Shown here: positions 17,295 through 21,765 of the stretch, piece after piece
How the letters are laid out: each line of letters begins with the position of its first letter
Numbering within the stretch: position 1 is the first letter of the stretch
Translations under genes and position numbers: made by a program
Assembly: GCA_944359725.1 (NCBI GenBank)
Contig: CALVSY010000001.1
Location: 1-64,000 of the forward strand
Reading direction: 5' to 3'
DNA: 64,000 nucleotides
From: an uncultured Bacilli bacterium
Lineage (GTDB): Bacteria; Bacillota_I; Bacilli_A; RF39; UBA660
The notes under the pieces: model-generated
Database searches by the model: none
Told to the model about the DNA's origin: nothing
What the model saw: only the letters and a program-made list of their open reading frames with translations

Positions 17295-17344
17295 AATTAT
17301 AATAGGCATGTGTGGTTACCCATGCCTATTATAATTATTTTTTT
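17295..17344. terminator. Strong bidirectional terminator
   Basis: Perfect 16-bp arms (17295-17310 and 17321-17336) with a 10-nt loop, followed by T8 on the plus strand. It separates the plus-strand gene from the convergent DUF1016 gene. Confidence 0.85.
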
Positions 17345-18233
17345 ACACTAACTCATATTCTCTATCTACTACGTTGTCATTTGGAACATATTCAAAAACA
17401 AATTTATTGTCTTTCTTACATAAGATAATGCCTAATGTTGGATTTTGATGGGATGTTTTTACATTTTTATCAATGTAGTTCATGTACGTTTTAATCTGTC
17501 CAAAGTGTTCTTTTTTTAGTTCTGCATTTTTTAATTCTAAAACAACATATCTATTATCTTTTATGTTGTATAAAAGAAAATCAATGTAGTAATACCTATC
17601 TCCTATTTTAATCTTATATTCATTTTCTATAAAACTAAAACCAACTCCTAATTCTTCTAAAAAAGCCGGCAGTTGTTCTAGTATTAGCTGTGCTAACATT
17701 TTTTCAGTTATATTGTTGGTATCATACATATTCTTAATAAGTATTGGATTCTTTATTAAATCTTCTGTTTTAGGTTCTTCCTTTTTTATTAACATCACTT
17801 TTGTTTTATCATCTAATCTTTCATATTCATTACTTTTTATCCTTTGTCTTAGTTCTCTTACTGATAAATTATTTTCTCCAGTGATTTTTATATAGTAATT
17901 AATCTTATTCATATTTTTCAAAGCAAGTAACTCTCTAAAGTGAGTCCAAGTCAATTGTGTCCCCACTGGGGACACTTTTTCATCTTTAAACGTTAAATAA
18001 AATTGTCTCATTCTAAACAAAGTTCTTTTGTTATATTTTTTACCAATTTCCATTTCCAATTTATCAGCATATTTCTTTATTATTCCTTCGCCATAATTTT
18101 TACCTGCTTCACTAAGTAATTTACCAACATTATAATAAGTCATTAAATCACTTCTATTTTTAGATATATCTTTTGCTTTTTTATATACTTCGTTATTTAT
18201 TAGTTCTTGTTTTATCTCATTATAATAGTTCAT
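17343..18233 (-). CDS. DUF1016/YhcG-type PD-(D/E)XK nuclease-like protein (copy A)
   Basis: 296 residues. The N-terminal DUF1016 domain contains a helical region with RMRQFYLTF and QLTWTHFRELL. The C-terminal half has a PD-(D/E)XK core: D218 in YYYIDFLLY and E233-x-K235 in VVLELKN, followed by QIKTYMNYID. The biological role of the family is poorly defined; members have been discussed as nucleases linked to mobile elements and defence. SD AAAGGA precedes ATG. Codons 87-92 contain a perfect 8-3-8 inverted repeat. The gene is the first of two tandem copies and close to a third, more distant paralog. Confidence 0.85.
   Translation of the reverse strand: MNYYNEIKQELINNEVYKKAKDISKNRSDLMTYYNVGKLLSEAGKNYGEGIIKKYADKLEMEIGKKYNKRTLFRMRQFYLTFKDEKVSPVGTQLTWTHFRELLALKNMNKINYYIKITGENNLSVRELRQRIKSNEYERLDDKTKVMLIKKEEPKTEDLIKNPILIKNMYDTNNITEKMLAQLILEQLPAFLEELGVGFSFIENEYKIKIGDRYYYIDFLLYNIKDNRYVVLELKNAELKKEHFGQIKTYMNYIDKNVKTSHQNPTLGIILCKKDNKFVFEYVPNDNVVDREYELV
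17957..17975. repeat. Inverted repeat inside DUF1016 copy A
   Basis: GTGTCCCCACTGGGGACAC: perfect 8-nt arms around ACT. It lies between the RMRQFYL and QLTWTH motifs, where the other DUF1016 genes carry a different inverted repeat of the same geometry. Confidence 0.85.
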
Positions 18234-18294
18234 ATAATAGTTCCTTTCGTTTTTTTAGTTTTTTATTATATGAACTATTTTTAAATAAATTGTC
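18225..18294 (-). promoter_or_regulatory. Promoter of DUF1016 copy A with -10/start-codon inverted repeat
   Basis: On the minus strand GACAAT (18289-18294), an 18-nt spacer, then TATAAT (18265-18270). A perfect 15-bp inverted repeat joins the -10 region (18264-18278) to the start-codon region (18225-18239), with the SD in the 24-nt loop. Because the upstream arm covers the -10, it is probably not transcribed, so the dyad is more likely read as DNA than as an mRNA hairpin. Confidence 0.65.
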
Positions 18295-18320
18295 GTATTA
18301 AGGTATTATAAACATATTTT

Positions 18321-19205
18321 TTACACTAACTCATATTCTCTATCTACTACGTTGTCATTTGGAACATATTCAAAAACAAATTTATTGTCTTTCTTACATA
18401 AGATAATGCCTAATGTTGGATTTTGATGGGATGTTTTTACGTTTTTATCGATGTAGTTCATGTACGTTTTAATCTGCCCAAAGTGCTCTTTTTTTAGTTC
18501 AGCATTTTTTAATTCTAAAACAACATATCTATTATCTTTTATGTTGTATAAAAGAAAATCAATATAATAATACCTATTTCCTATTTTTATCTTATATTCA
18601 TTTTTTATGAAGCAAAAACCAACTCCTAATTCTTCTAAAAAAGATGGTAATTGTTCTAATATTAATTGCCCTAACATTTTCTCGGTTATATTGCTGGTAT
18701 CATATATATTTTTAATAATAATTGGATTTTTTATTAAATCTTCTGTTTTTGGTTCTTCTTTTTTTATTAACATTGCTTTTGTTTTATCATCAAGTCTTTC
18801 ATATTCATTGTTTTTTATTTTTAATCTTAGTTCTCTATATGATATATTTTGATGTTCACAAATAAATATATAATAGTTTATTTCATTAATATTTTTTAAA
18901 GGTAAAAGTGCATTTATATGTGTCCAGCTTAATTGGTGTGGCATAGCTACACCTTTTTGTATTAACAAATAAAACTGTCTCATTCTTTTCAAATTCGACG
19001 TACTATAACCTTTTCCTAACTCTTCCGTCAACCTAACTGAATACTTTTTTATTATTCCTTCACCATAGTTTTTGCCTGCTTCACTAAGTAATTTACCAAC
19101 GTTGTAATAAGTCTTTAAATCACTTCTATTTTTAGAATAATCTTTTACTTTTTTATATACTTCGTTATTTATTAGTTCTTGTTTTATTTCGTTATAATAG
19201 TTCAT
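18321..19205 (-). CDS. DUF1016/YhcG-type PD-(D/E)XK nuclease-like protein (copy B)
   Basis: 294 residues. Nearly identical to copy A at residues 1-55 and from about 135 to the end, including the nuclease core (YYYIDFLLY, VVLELKN). The central segment differs (SVRLTEELGKGYSTSNLKRM, QKGVAMPHQLSWTH instead of the copy A sequence) and looks closer to the third paralog there. This points to a variable central recognition module between conserved ends. Codons 85-90 carry an 8-3-8 inverted repeat with one mismatch. SD AAAGGA; promoter as in copy A. Confidence 0.85.
   Translation of the reverse strand: MNYYNEIKQELINNEVYKKVKDYSKNRSDLKTYYNVGKLLSEAGKNYGEGIIKKYSVRLTEELGKGYSTSNLKRMRQFYLLIQKGVAMPHQLSWTHINALLPLKNINEINYYIFICEHQNISYRELRLKIKNNEYERLDDKTKAMLIKKEEPKTEDLIKNPIIIKNIYDTSNITEKMLGQLILEQLPSFLEELGVGFCFIKNEYKIKIGNRYYYIDFLLYNIKDNRYVVLELKNAELKKEHFGQIKTYMNYIDKNVKTSHQNPTLGIILCKKDNKFVFEYVPNDNVVDREYELV
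18935..18953. repeat. Inverted repeat inside DUF1016 copy B
   Basis: GGTGTGGC ATA GCTACACC: 7 of 8 arm positions pair (the exception is G-U on one strand). Same alignment position as in copies A and C, different sequence. Confidence 0.75.
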
Positions 19206-19266
19206 ATAATAGTTCCTTTCGTTTTTTTAGTTTTCTATTATATAAACTATTTTTGAAAAGTTTGTC
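19197..19266 (-). promoter_or_regulatory. Promoter of DUF1016 copy B with -10/start-codon inverted repeat
   Basis: GACAAA (19261-19266), 18-nt spacer, TATAAT (19237-19242). Arms 19236-19250 and 19197-19211 are inverted copies over 15 bp with one mismatch. Layout is the same as for copies A and C. Confidence 0.6.
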
Positions 19267-19287
19267 GAAATATAATTTAATTTAAAA

Positions 19288-19311
19288 AAAGACAGTTTAA
19301 TAACTATCTTT
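19288..19311 (-). terminator. Terminator after the 19320-19799 gene
   Basis: AAAGACAGTT / AACTATCTTT, one G-U pair, loop TAAT, followed on the minus strand by T7. Confidence 0.7.
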
Positions 19312-19319
19312 AGCATTTT

Positions 19320-19799
19320 TTACTTTAATTTTGGTCTTAATTTAATATGATTTTTGCTTTTAAGTGAATCACCGTCAACATAATTATTACTTTGTTGGTT
19401 TTCTAATCGTAATCTTTTACATATTAGGCTATATTTTTCTTGGGCTGTTTTATCACTTAATGAATATGCAATCATTCTTTCATCAAACTGATGCAAATTG
19501 CTTTCTTGAGAATCTTTATCTCTTGCAATATTAACTAAACACTGGGCAATAACATCACTTTTAGATTCATTTATAAGTTTTGCATCCGTTAAATAATAAT
19601 CACTATTTAGAAAATCCAAATCCACTAGTATTTCTCTAAATTGTGATAATCTTTTTAATGGATAAACGTTAAGGTTTAAAAAATTAGCTCGTTGCTTTTC
19701 ATTTAGCGAACTAAACCAAGTACTCACATCTTTAACGTAATCTTCTAACTGATAATTTTTTAATTGATAAATAACTTCTTGTAATTCTTCTTTTTTCAT
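19320..19799 (-). CDS. Unknown helical protein in the DUF1016/BRO island
   Basis: 159 residues, no signal peptide or membrane segment, mostly helical (KKEELQEVIYQLKNYQLEDY, then LNEKQRANFLNL). It is polar and ends in a basic KLRPKLK-type tail. I do not recognise a family. The start is the ATG with SD AAGGAG 7 nt upstream; the nine upstream in-frame codons overlap that SD. It lies between DUF1016 copies B and C with its own terminator and may be cargo of the island. It carries no embedded inverted repeat that I can see. Confidence 0.6.
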   Translation of the reverse strand: MKKEELQEVIYQLKNYQLEDYVKDVSTWFSSLNEKQRANFLNLNVYPLKRLSQFREILVDLDFLNSDYYLTDAKLINESKSDVIAQCLVNIARDKDSQESNLHQFDERMIAYSLSDKTAQEKYSLICKRLRLENQQSNNYVDGDSLKSKNHIKLRPKLK

Positions 19800-19886
19800 A
19801 CTTCTTCTCCTTACTTGTTTTACCATTATAACGCTTTTTAAAGCTAATTTAAACAGTTATTTTAGTTTTTAGTACAATTTTACAAT

Positions 19887-20816
19887 TCAAATTATACATG
19901 CCCGTTTATTATCTACTTCATAACTAACCATATAAATACCTTCATCATTTACATACTGTAAAATAAATTTATCATTTTTCTTTGATATTATAAGACCTAT
20001 TGTTTTGCTATGATGCTTTTTCTTTAACGTCTTATCTACTAGGCTCATGTATAACCTTATTTGTGAGATATCTTTATAATTTGTTTTATTTAGTTTTAGT
20101 TCTACTGGTATGTAACAATTTAAATTTATGTTAAATAAAAGCATGTCTATGTAAAAGTTTTTATCTAAATAACTTATCTTATATTCACTTCCTGCATATA
20201 AAAAGCCTGATCCTAACTGTAAAAAGATATCTCTTAACTCTTCTATAATATATTTTTTTAGCATCTTTTCACTTAACTTTTCTTTATTTGGTGCTTTTAT
20301 TATGATTGGATCAAGTAACATATCTTTCAAACTATAATTAGGTTCGTCTTTATTATCTATTAGTTTTACGTTTTCTTTATCTGCATATGATAATCTATCA
20401 AAAGCTTTTTCTTTTATTAGTTTTATTAACTCTCTTTTAGATAAGTTATTTAATATACACTGGTTTATATAATAGTTTCTTTCGTTTTCATTTTTGATTG
20501 GTAGTAATATAGTCCAGTGTGTCCATGTTAATTGGTCCACCACTGGTGCACCTTTTTGTATAATATAGAATTGCCTCATTCTTTTTAAATTAGTAGTTGA
20601 ATATCCTTTTCCGTATATCTCCATTAGTTTTTTAGACCAATTCTTAATTAACATATCACCATATTTTGATTTATTTTCTCCACCTTGTGCTTCTACTAGT
20701 AGTCTTCCTATTTCATAGTATGCACTTAAAGTATCTTTATTTGACTGTAGTCTTCTTACTCCTTCATTCACTTCTTTTTTTTCTATTACGTCTTTTATTT
20801 TATTGTAATAATCCAT
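19887..20816 (-). CDS. DUF1016/YhcG-type PD-(D/E)XK nuclease-like protein (copy C)
   Basis: 309 residues, a diverged paralog of copies A and B. N-terminal DUF1016 region with LKRMRQFYII and QLTWTHWTILL. C-terminal nuclease core YIDMLLF ... IPVELKLNK with the Asp and Glu-x-Lys of the PD-(D/E)XK fold, then QIRLYMSLVDK. SD AAAGGAG. Codons 89-94 (GAPVVD) carry an inverted repeat with the same 8-3-8 geometry as in A and B, although the bases differ. The BRO-N gene starts 68 bp from its promoter side on the same strand. Confidence 0.85.
   Translation of the reverse strand: MDYYNKIKDVIEKKEVNEGVRRLQSNKDTLSAYYEIGRLLVEAQGGENKSKYGDMLIKNWSKKLMEIYGKGYSTTNLKRMRQFYIIQKGAPVVDQLTWTHWTILLPIKNENERNYYINQCILNNLSKRELIKLIKEKAFDRLSYADKENVKLIDNKDEPNYSLKDMLLDPIIIKAPNKEKLSEKMLKKYIIEELRDIFLQLGSGFLYAGSEYKISYLDKNFYIDMLLFNINLNCYIPVELKLNKTNYKDISQIRLYMSLVDKTLKKKHHSKTIGLIISKKNDKFILQYVNDEGIYMVSYEVDNKRACII
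20534..20552. repeat. Inverted repeat inside DUF1016 copy C
   Basis: GGTCCACC ACT GGTGCACC: 7 of 8 arm positions complementary, loop ACT as in copy A. It lies just before QLTWTH in the protein. Confidence 0.75.
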
Positions 20817-20871
20817 ATTATGCTCCTTTCGGGTTAGTTATTATATGGATTTTTTTTAAGAAATTAGTCGA
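20810..20871 (-). promoter_or_regulatory. Promoter of DUF1016 copy C with -10/start-codon inverted repeat
   Basis: TATAAT at 20840-20845, with a GACTAA-like -35 18 nt upstream inside TTCGACTAA. AATCCATAT over the -10 edge (20843-20851, minus strand) is the inverse of ATATGGATT over the start codon (20810-20818). In copies A and B both arms are different (GTTCATAT / ATATGAAC), so the arms have changed together. Confidence 0.6.
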
Positions 20872-20884
20872 AGTTTGTAAAATA

Positions 20885-21709
20885 TTAATTTAATCTATTT
20901 TTGTTAGTTAAATCAAGATGATTTTCACTAGTAACAACCGGTCTTTTAATTTTATCTTCAAGTTCATCTTTAGCCTTTTTCATAACTTTACCCGCATCAT
21001 TAGCATCCTTTTTTAAATCATTCATACAGGCACTTTCATTACTCTTATGTATTTCTACTGCTGATGCTTCTGCAAGATTAGTTAAAGCGAGTTCTATATT
21101 AGTCATTGAATCTCTTAAATTTTTGCTTTCATGTATTTTTTTTATTTTTTTATACTCTTTAGCAGTTAGTCCAAAACCAGATTTATATATTTCGTTGGTA
21201 AGGATTGCATAATCAAGTGAGTTGCTAGCACCTCTTTCCTTCCATTCGTCCACTAAATTATGTCTTGTTGTTATACCACGTTCCCTTTGCTCTATCCAGG
21301 CTTTTGAATATCCTTTTTGTTCATACAATCTCTTCATTCTATCCATTGCAAGTTCAGGATTATTTATCTCATCAATTCGTTCTTTCCCAACTTTTGCAAG
21401 CCACCTTTTAAACGGTTCCGCTTTTTTAGATGGAATTGACTGAATTATTCTAAGAATACCTTCGGTATCGGCCATTTGAACCAATCTTTTTTTACCATCT
21501 TTTGCAATTGCTTTAACCTGGGTACAAATTGTACCCCAGTTGATTTTCAATTCATCATCACGAACTTTAATTTTCTTTATATACTGCTTAGGATCTTTGG
21601 AATCAGTAAGAGCATATACTATATCCTCTATACTAAAATACCATTTCTCATCCCGCCAAGTTCTTCTTATTTGTTTTTCTTCAAATAATGCTATTTTATT
21701 TTCATGCAT
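20885..21709 (-). CDS. BRO-N domain protein (phage antirepressor-like)
   Basis: 274 residues. The BRO-N domain spans about residues 1-105 (IALFEEKQIRRTWRDEKWYF, then ADTEGILRIIQSIPSKKAEP and FKRWLAKVG). A conserved C-terminal helical region follows (RLYEQKGYSKAWIEQRERG, LTNEIYKSGFGLTAKEYK). BRO-N domains bind DNA; cellular copies without prophage genes nearby have no settled role. SD AGGAGG is 7 nt from ATG; the upstream in-frame ATG at 21739 lacks a good SD. Codons 59-64 carry an inverted repeat. A second BRO-N gene lies at 62643-63500. Confidence 0.85.
   Translation of the reverse strand: MHENKIALFEEKQIRRTWRDEKWYFSIEDIVYALTDSKDPKQYIKKIKVRDDELKINWGTICTQVKAIAKDGKKRLVQMADTEGILRIIQSIPSKKAEPFKRWLAKVGKERIDEINNPELAMDRMKRLYEQKGYSKAWIEQRERGITTRHNLVDEWKERGASNSLDYAILTNEIYKSGFGLTAKEYKKIKKIHESKNLRDSMTNIELALTNLAEASAVEIHKSNESACMNDLKKDANDAGKVMKKAKDELEDKIKRPVVTSENHLDLTNKNRLN
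21520..21536. repeat. Inverted repeat inside BRO-N gene 1
   Basis: GGGTACAA A TTGTACCC: perfect 8-nt arms with a 1-nt loop, extended by CT/AG around one bulged base. It lies in the variable segment NWGTICTQVKA between two conserved BRO-N blocks. Confidence 0.85.
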
Positions 21710-21765
21710 TATGTCACCTCCTAACTTATATTTCTCCATAAATTTTAAAATTCCCCTAATTTTTT

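What the first reader, a model, noticed from the sequence alone, without database searches (positions are those of the whole stretch)
18225..20871. -10 box and start codon joined by a covarying inverted repeat in three DUF1016 promoters
In copy A a perfect 15-bp inverted repeat links the -10 (18264-18278) with the ATG (18225-18239). Copy B keeps it with one mismatch. Copy C keeps a 9-bp version of different sequence (AATCCATAT / ATATGGATT). Both arms changed between A/B and C, so pairing was preserved. The upstream arm covers TATAAT and is probably not transcribed, favouring a two-site operator read on DNA.
Basis: partly seen in the sequence, partly recalled or inferred. Interest (0 to 1): 0.7.

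Follow-up and report, generated by a model that had tools for sequence, protein, structure and literature searches.

The report
Start-codon lock on mobile nuclease genes
Many copies of a bacterial nuclease gene (DUF1016/YhcG) share a conserved pairing between their promoter and their start codon, which most likely acts as an RNA lock that silences the gene when neighbouring genes are read through into it but leaves its own transcript free; this resembles a known trick of phage homing-nuclease genes, in a gene family where I found no report of it.

Summary
The inverted repeat is real and conserved. Among 45 promoter-bearing DUF1016 (YhcG) genes of the window's genus (Candidatus Aphodocola-like, 18 genomes), the -10 box and start-codon regions pair in one fixed register, in both protein subfamilies. 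Own arms pair better than swapped arms (0 of 20,000 permutations). Codon 2, including its synonymous third base, covaries with the promoter base it faces; no phylogenetically independent pair goes the opposite way. Copies inside operons lack both promoter and arm; about 346 other genes show nothing comparable.

The -10-to-ATG distance takes every value from 26 to 37 bp, and the base facing AUG's G is C or U (22 each of 45), as RNA pairing allows.

Best explanation: an RNA lock against read-through, as in T4 homing endonuclease genes. Transcripts entering from upstream include the upstream arm and hide the AUG; transcripts from the gene's own -10 start past it and do not. Opening the start region costs 8.4 kcal/mol more in read-through RNA, against 2.2 for other genes (p=1e-15). 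No transcript has been mapped.

In passing, and more striking: nearly every DUF1016 gene examined, E. coli yhcG included, carries a perfect, gene-specific coding palindrome at one site.

The parts
17343..18233 (-). DUF1016/YhcG nuclease gene, copy A
   Evidence: Pfam YhcG_C 4e-34 and DUF1016_N 4e-27
18224..18279 (-). copy A, whole hairpin unit
   Evidence: covariance-model match E 1.5e-10
18225..18239 (-). copy A, downstream arm of the hairpin: last bases of the 5' leader, ATG, codons 2-3
   Evidence: perfect 15-bp inverted repeat
18242..18248 (-). copy A, ribosome-binding site GAAAGGA, in the hairpin loop
   Evidence: read from the sequence
18264..18278 (-). copy A, upstream arm of the hairpin; contains the -10 TATAAT (18270-18265)
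   Evidence: -10 nearly invariant in promoter-bearing relatives
18291..18296 (-). copy A, -35-like element ACGACA, 20-bp spacer to TATAAT
   Evidence: conserved TCGACA-like element at 20 bp in 29 of 45 genes
18321..19205 (-). DUF1016/YhcG nuclease gene, copy B, directly upstream of A, same strand, no terminator found between them
   Evidence: Pfam; terminator check
19196..19251 (-). copy B, whole hairpin unit (arm with TATAAT 19242-19237, loop with RBS, arm with ATG 19205-19203)
   Evidence: covariance-model match E 2.0e-10
19887..20816 (-). DUF1016/YhcG nuclease gene, copy C (second subfamily)
   Evidence: Pfam DUF1016_N 6e-31, YhcG_C 1e-28
20807..20854 (-). copy C, whole hairpin unit (AATCCATAT 20843-20851 with ATATGGATT 20810-20818)
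   Evidence: covariance-model match E 1.6e-10

Best explanation
It is an RNA lock against read-through. Each DUF1016 gene has its own promoter, and the sequence of its -10 region is complementary to the start codon and its flanks. RNA polymerase arriving from the upstream gene (usually a co-directional housekeeping gene, or the preceding DUF1016 copy) makes an mRNA that holds both arms; it folds, buries the AUG and the bases around it, and the nuclease is not translated. RNA made from the gene's own -10 starts a few bases past the upstream arm, lacks it, and leaves the start site open. The nuclease is therefore made only under its own promoter, wherever the gene lands. Shown here: conservation, covariation, predicted folds, genomic context. 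Inferred: the transcription start, read-through in cells, block of translation, and benefit to a gene that moves.
For: Fixed register of -10 and ATG in 45 promoter-bearing genes of two subfamilies about 40% identical. Own arms beat swapped arms: 6.64 Watson-Crick pairs versus 6.21 +/- 0.10, 0 of 20,000. Codon-2 third base with promoter base: 20 G-C and 13 A-T, against 4 A.C and 2 G.T (Fisher 3e-5); codon-2 first base p=0.003. Independent pairs on the protein tree: same direction about 4 of 6 and 2.6 of 5, never opposite. 82.9% of cells pair, against at most 47.1% in slid registers. RNAalifold finds the helix in each subfamily alone, and single-sequence folds keep the AUG pair in 39 of 44. AUG buried (unpaired probability at most 0.1) in 38 of 45 read-through RNAs; extra opening cost 8.4 versus 2.2 kcal/mol, p=1e-15. 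Twelve promoterless DUF1016 copies, nearly all with the same kind of coding start, show background stems. Extended -10 (TGn) occurs in 47 of 112 ordinary TATAAT promoters but 0 of 45 here, where that base faces AUG's G (p=4e-9). Upstream gene co-directional in 32 of 42 classifiable cases. -10-to-ATG distance 26-37.
Against: No RNA data: neither the start site nor read-through is shown. Ten of 42 classifiable copies have a divergent upstream gene yet mostly keep the hairpin; their lock is weaker (6.5 versus 9.0 kcal/mol) but not significantly (p=0.07). The -35-like element sits 20 bp from the -10, where ordinary promoters of this genome peak at 17, so the promoter is unusual. RNAalifold on all 44 rows together, including those without the dyad, predicts no pairs. 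Covariation is confined to codon 2, because ATG and TATAAT cannot vary; codon 3's third base (TAT/TAC) does not covary. Sign tests on the tree are small. Comparing G.U with A.C changes at sites free on both sides is inconclusive.
Confidence: 0.62

Rival explanations
1. DNA operator: a dimeric regulator, perhaps the DUF1016 protein itself, binds two inverted half-sites over the -10 and over the start codon and represses the promoter (the reader's view; I-TevI autorepression at its own promoter is a precedent).
For: The arms cover the two natural repression points. I-TevI binds an operator overlapping its late promoter (PMC2988022). The A-type arms are nearly identical between copies.
Against: Every spacing from 26 to 37 bp occurs. 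Half of the genes have T where a symmetric half-site needs C. A synonymous codon base tracks the promoter base among paralogs, which fits base pairing better than a new protein specificity. The arms have no common consensus beyond what coding and the -10 impose.
Confidence: 0.12
2. Riboregulation of the main mRNA: transcription starts upstream of the -10 arm, so the hairpin is always present and is opened by a ligand, an sRNA, temperature or a translating ribosome.
For: The TCGACA-N20-TATAAT spacing is abnormal, so the real start is open. Copies with a divergent upstream gene keep the hairpin.
Against: TATAATA is essentially invariant and lies at the distance from ATG usual for promoters here; copies without it are mostly those joined to an upstream gene. 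No other conserved promoter was seen upstream. No Rfam family matches the site.
Confidence: 0.13
3. No function: relatedness plus template-switch repair of an imperfect inverted repeat keeps the arms matched in recently duplicated genes.
For: Copies are related and often near-identical around the start. The start region also contains short direct repeats, and one copy has lost its ATG, apparently by deletion between them (L009). Control (a) does not correct for relatedness.
Against: Independent pairs on the tree never go the wrong way. Promoterless copies lack the arm. The non-TATAAT part of the arm is kept mainly where it pairs. G.U-containing stems are not what template switching yields.
Confidence: 0.13

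Closest known systems
RNA hairpins of T-even phage homing endonuclease genes (I-TevI, I-TevII, I-TevIII, segB, mobE)
   Same: A hairpin on long transcripts from upstream promoters blocks translation of a nuclease gene; a promoter placed inside or next to the hairpin makes a transcript too short to form it (PMC2988022).
   Different: There the ribosome-binding site is in the stem and the promoter is a phage late or middle promoter. Here the AUG is in the stem, the RBS is in the loop, the -10 box itself is the 5' arm, and the genes are bacterial DUF1016 nucleases. No experiment has been done here.
Insertion-sequence transposase genes protected from outside transcription (IS10, IS50)
   Same: Read-through RNA hides the translation start while the element's own transcript does not (own knowledge, not tested here).
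   Different: Not transposases; no terminal inverted repeats were sought or found; how the DUF1016 cassettes move is unknown.
Autorepression operator of I-TevI
   Different: Needs a defined binding site; spacing and base pattern here fit RNA pairing better.

Membership tests
DUF1016/YhcG PDDEXK nuclease family (PADLOC candidate PDC-S02) | DUF1016_N plus YhcG_C domains in one protein | tested here: met
   All three copies above Pfam cut-offs; PDC-S02 E 4e-65 to 2e-63
Read-through-locked nuclease genes (I-TevI type) | Conserved hairpin that hides the translation start on long transcripts | tested here: met
   Predicted in 38 of 45 genes, with covariation
Read-through-locked nuclease genes (I-TevI type) | Own promoter placed so that its transcript lacks the 5' arm | tested here: inconclusive
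   The -10 lies inside the 5' arm in all 45; the start is not mapped and the spacer is 20 bp
Read-through-locked nuclease genes (I-TevI type) | Ribosome-binding site itself paired in the stem | tested here: not met
   GAAAGGA lies in the loop; the AUG and its flanks are in the stem
Read-through-locked nuclease genes (I-TevI type) | Upstream transcription enters the gene | tested here: inconclusive
   32 of 42 upstream genes are co-directional, often with a terminator between; no terminator found between B and A
Read-through-locked nuclease genes (I-TevI type) | Translation shown to be repressed on long transcripts | not testable with these tools
   Needs RNA or reporter experiments
Two-site DNA operator | Constant or helically phased spacing of the half-sites | tested here: not met
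   26 to 37 bp, every value occurs
Two-site DNA operator | A protein that binds both half-sites | not testable with these tools
   No binding data

The most novel reading that the evidence does not exclude
DUF1016/YhcG genes are a widespread kind of solitary mobile nuclease gene: promoter-plus-ORF cassettes that settle behind core genes, insulated (in this genus) from read-through by a start-codon lock, and carrying inside the ORF a gene-specific perfect palindrome that encodes part of the nuclease and may also be the DNA or RNA site the protein recognises, so that each gene carries its own specificity mark.
Probability: 0.25. Interest if true: 0.9.

Novelty: new variant of a known kind. Interest (0 to 1): 0.6.

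Why it matters
DUF1016/YhcG proteins are common, are listed as candidate phage-defence proteins, and I found almost no functional work on them. A lock that restricts their translation to their own promoter would say they are costly when expressed at the wrong time and that they behave like mobile genes that must survive in any transcriptional setting. It gives a simple reporter test, and with the coding palindrome a handle on what these nucleases recognise.

Tried and rejected
Chance pairing of two AT-rich sites: rejected by other genes and by promoterless DUF1016 copies. By-product of the coding sequence MNYY: rejected, since copies with the same codons but no promoter lack the arm. Antisense promoter in the second arm: not conserved (L013, L018). 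A general RNA element on other genes: strong covariance-model hits in the genus are DUF1016 genes or their remnants; weaker family-wide hits are other genes that happen to begin MNYY or similar, such as small Tyr/Gly-rich proteins. Known RNA family: no credible Rfam match. Wobble asymmetry as proof of RNA: inconclusive where both sides are free to vary. RNAalifold on all 44 rows: no structure, explained by rows lacking the dyad.

Full report
OBSERVATION. The minus strand of the window holds three DUF1016/YhcG nuclease genes, A (18233-17343), B (19205-18321) and C (20816-19887), each with both Pfam domains. The inverted repeat between -10 and ATG is exactly as described for A, present with one G.U position in B, and 9 bp in C. 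In about 346 other genes from 464 kb of the same genome no Watson-Crick stem between upstream region and start region reaches 12 bp and two reach 9 or 10; the outliers in the raw list turned out to be further DUF1016 copies.

RELATIVES. The window's genome has about eight DUF1016 places and the genus about 110, many of them broken. Named relatives include Candidatus Aphodocola excrementigallinarum. I compiled 63 start regions from the 18 genomes of the genus. Forty-five non-redundant ones have TATAAT (two TATAGT) 26-37 bp upstream of ATG; those without it are mostly joined to an upstream gene.

PAIRING AND COVARIATION. In a register fixed by TATAAT and ATG, the arms pair in both subfamilies. 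Own arms pair better than arms swapped between genes. The signal sits in codon 2. Its third base (AAC/AAT, GAC/GAT, synonymous) tracks G/A in the promoter arm (33 matched against 6), and its first base (Asn/Asp) tracks T/C. On a protein tree built without the first 12 residues, phylogenetically independent pairs always change in the matching direction or not at all. Slid registers pair at most 47% of cells against 82.9%. The base facing AUG's G is C 22, U 22, A 1. Ordinary TATAAT promoters of this genome often have the TGn extension (47 of 112); these have none (0 of 45), as expected if that base must face AUG's G. Numbers of genes are not numbers of events, since the copies are related.

RNA OR DNA. 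Spacing takes every value from 26 to 37, which argues against a rigid two-site operator. Folding predicts that a read-through RNA buries AUG in 38 of 45 genes, while the RNA starting after TATAAT leaves it largely open; the difference in opening energy is 8.4 against 2.2 kcal/mol in 77 other TATAAT genes. RNAalifold recovers the helix in the A-type and the C-type set separately, though not in the full set that includes rows without the dyad.

CONTEXT. Upstream genes are co-directional in 32 of 42 classifiable cases, commonly core genes. For two upstream genes the family was checked with NCBIfam: the mtaB-type methylthiotransferase C-terminus of G000:C18 and recG of the window; mnmE, yneF and pflA were recognised from their sequences only. 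Many carry a terminator that ends right at the DUF1016 promoter. At mtaB-recD2 some genomes have the two genes adjacent (G002, G003), one has what looks like a promoter remnant (G011), and others carry one or two DUF1016 genes, some broken, between them. Homology between copies at different sites starts near the -35-like element and ends near the stop codon, judged by eye. This looks like a cassette that settles behind transcribed genes, where a lock against read-through would pay. B precedes A with no terminator found between them. The lock tends to be stronger behind co-directional genes (9.0 versus 6.5 kcal/mol) but p is 0.07.

SPECIFICITY. A covariance model of the unit finds, with strong scores in the genus, only DUF1016 genes and their remnants. 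DUF1016 relatives from other genera that I inspected by eye lack it.

KNOWN COUNTERPART. The same logic is described for T-even homing endonucleases (PMC2988022): structure on long transcripts blocks translation, and a nearby promoter makes a short, open transcript. Here the AUG rather than the RBS is in the stem, and the -10 box is the arm. IS10 and IS50 are further precedents from my own knowledge. I found no paper linking DUF1016 to either feature in the open library; subscription papers and preprints are not in it.

WHAT IS OPEN. The transcription start, actual read-through, translation block, mode of movement, and the role of the odd 20-bp spacer.

A SECOND FEATURE. While checking terminators I found that DUF1016 ORFs carry at one site, just before L-[ST]-[WY]-[ST]-H, a perfect palindrome with arms of 7-15 bp, often centred on CANTG, whose sequence differs between genes. 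It is present in most genus copies, in 55 of 65 copies from other loci of the genome collection with none elsewhere in the same genes and none in codon shuffles (a few of those 65 belong to the genus), and in 7 of 8 distant genes including E. coli K-12 yhcG (AAAGATTTGGCAGACGCTGTCTGCCAAATCTTT) and copies from Fusobacterium, Phocaeicola, Nostoc, Collinsella, Hymenobacter and Rhodococcus. Two exact types searched through the 18 genomes occur only inside DUF1016 genes. I report it as noticed in passing because it lies outside the finding, but it may be the more important clue to what these nucleases recognise.

Noticed in passing
17957-17975 (A), 18935-18953 (B, one mismatch), 20534-20552 (C, imperfect); L349 yhcG nt 378-410 of the ORF; many loci L051-L116, L350-L355: Gene-specific, mostly perfect palindrome (arms 7-15 bp) at one fixed site inside DUF1016/YhcG ORFs across many bacterial phyla: 55 of 65 genes from the genome collection, none elsewhere in those genes, none in codon shuffles. 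Function unknown; possibly the protein's own recognition site or a specificity mark.
   Followed up: partly
mtaB-recD2 intergenic regions, L320-L338 and L005, L009, L012, L018, L021: DUF1016 genes are present, broken, doubled or absent between the same two core genes in different genomes of the genus; G011 keeps what looks like only a promoter remnant.
   Followed up: partly
promoters of A, B, C and relatives: Conserved TCGACA-like element 20 bp upstream of TATAAT, where ordinary promoters of this genome peak at 17 bp; a few unrelated genes share the 20-bp arrangement.
   Followed up: partly
L009 (G005:C30) around 1465-1505: A DUF1016 ORF otherwise without stops has lost its ATG, apparently by deletion between the direct repeats AACTATTATA that flank the start codon.
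   Followed up: no
19320-19799: Small unknown ORF with a sequence relative placed together with a DUF1016 gene downstream of mtaB in G007: perhaps another cassette gene of the same sites.
   Followed up: no
17343-19205: Copies A and B are 96% and 89% identical at DNA level at their two ends but diverged in the middle, as if the N-terminal specificity part is exchanged or under diversification.
   Followed up: no
20885-21739: Bro-N/DinD-like gene (PADLOC PDC-S13, E 1e-104) beside the DUF1016 cluster and downstream of recG: a small island of candidate defence genes.
   Followed up: no
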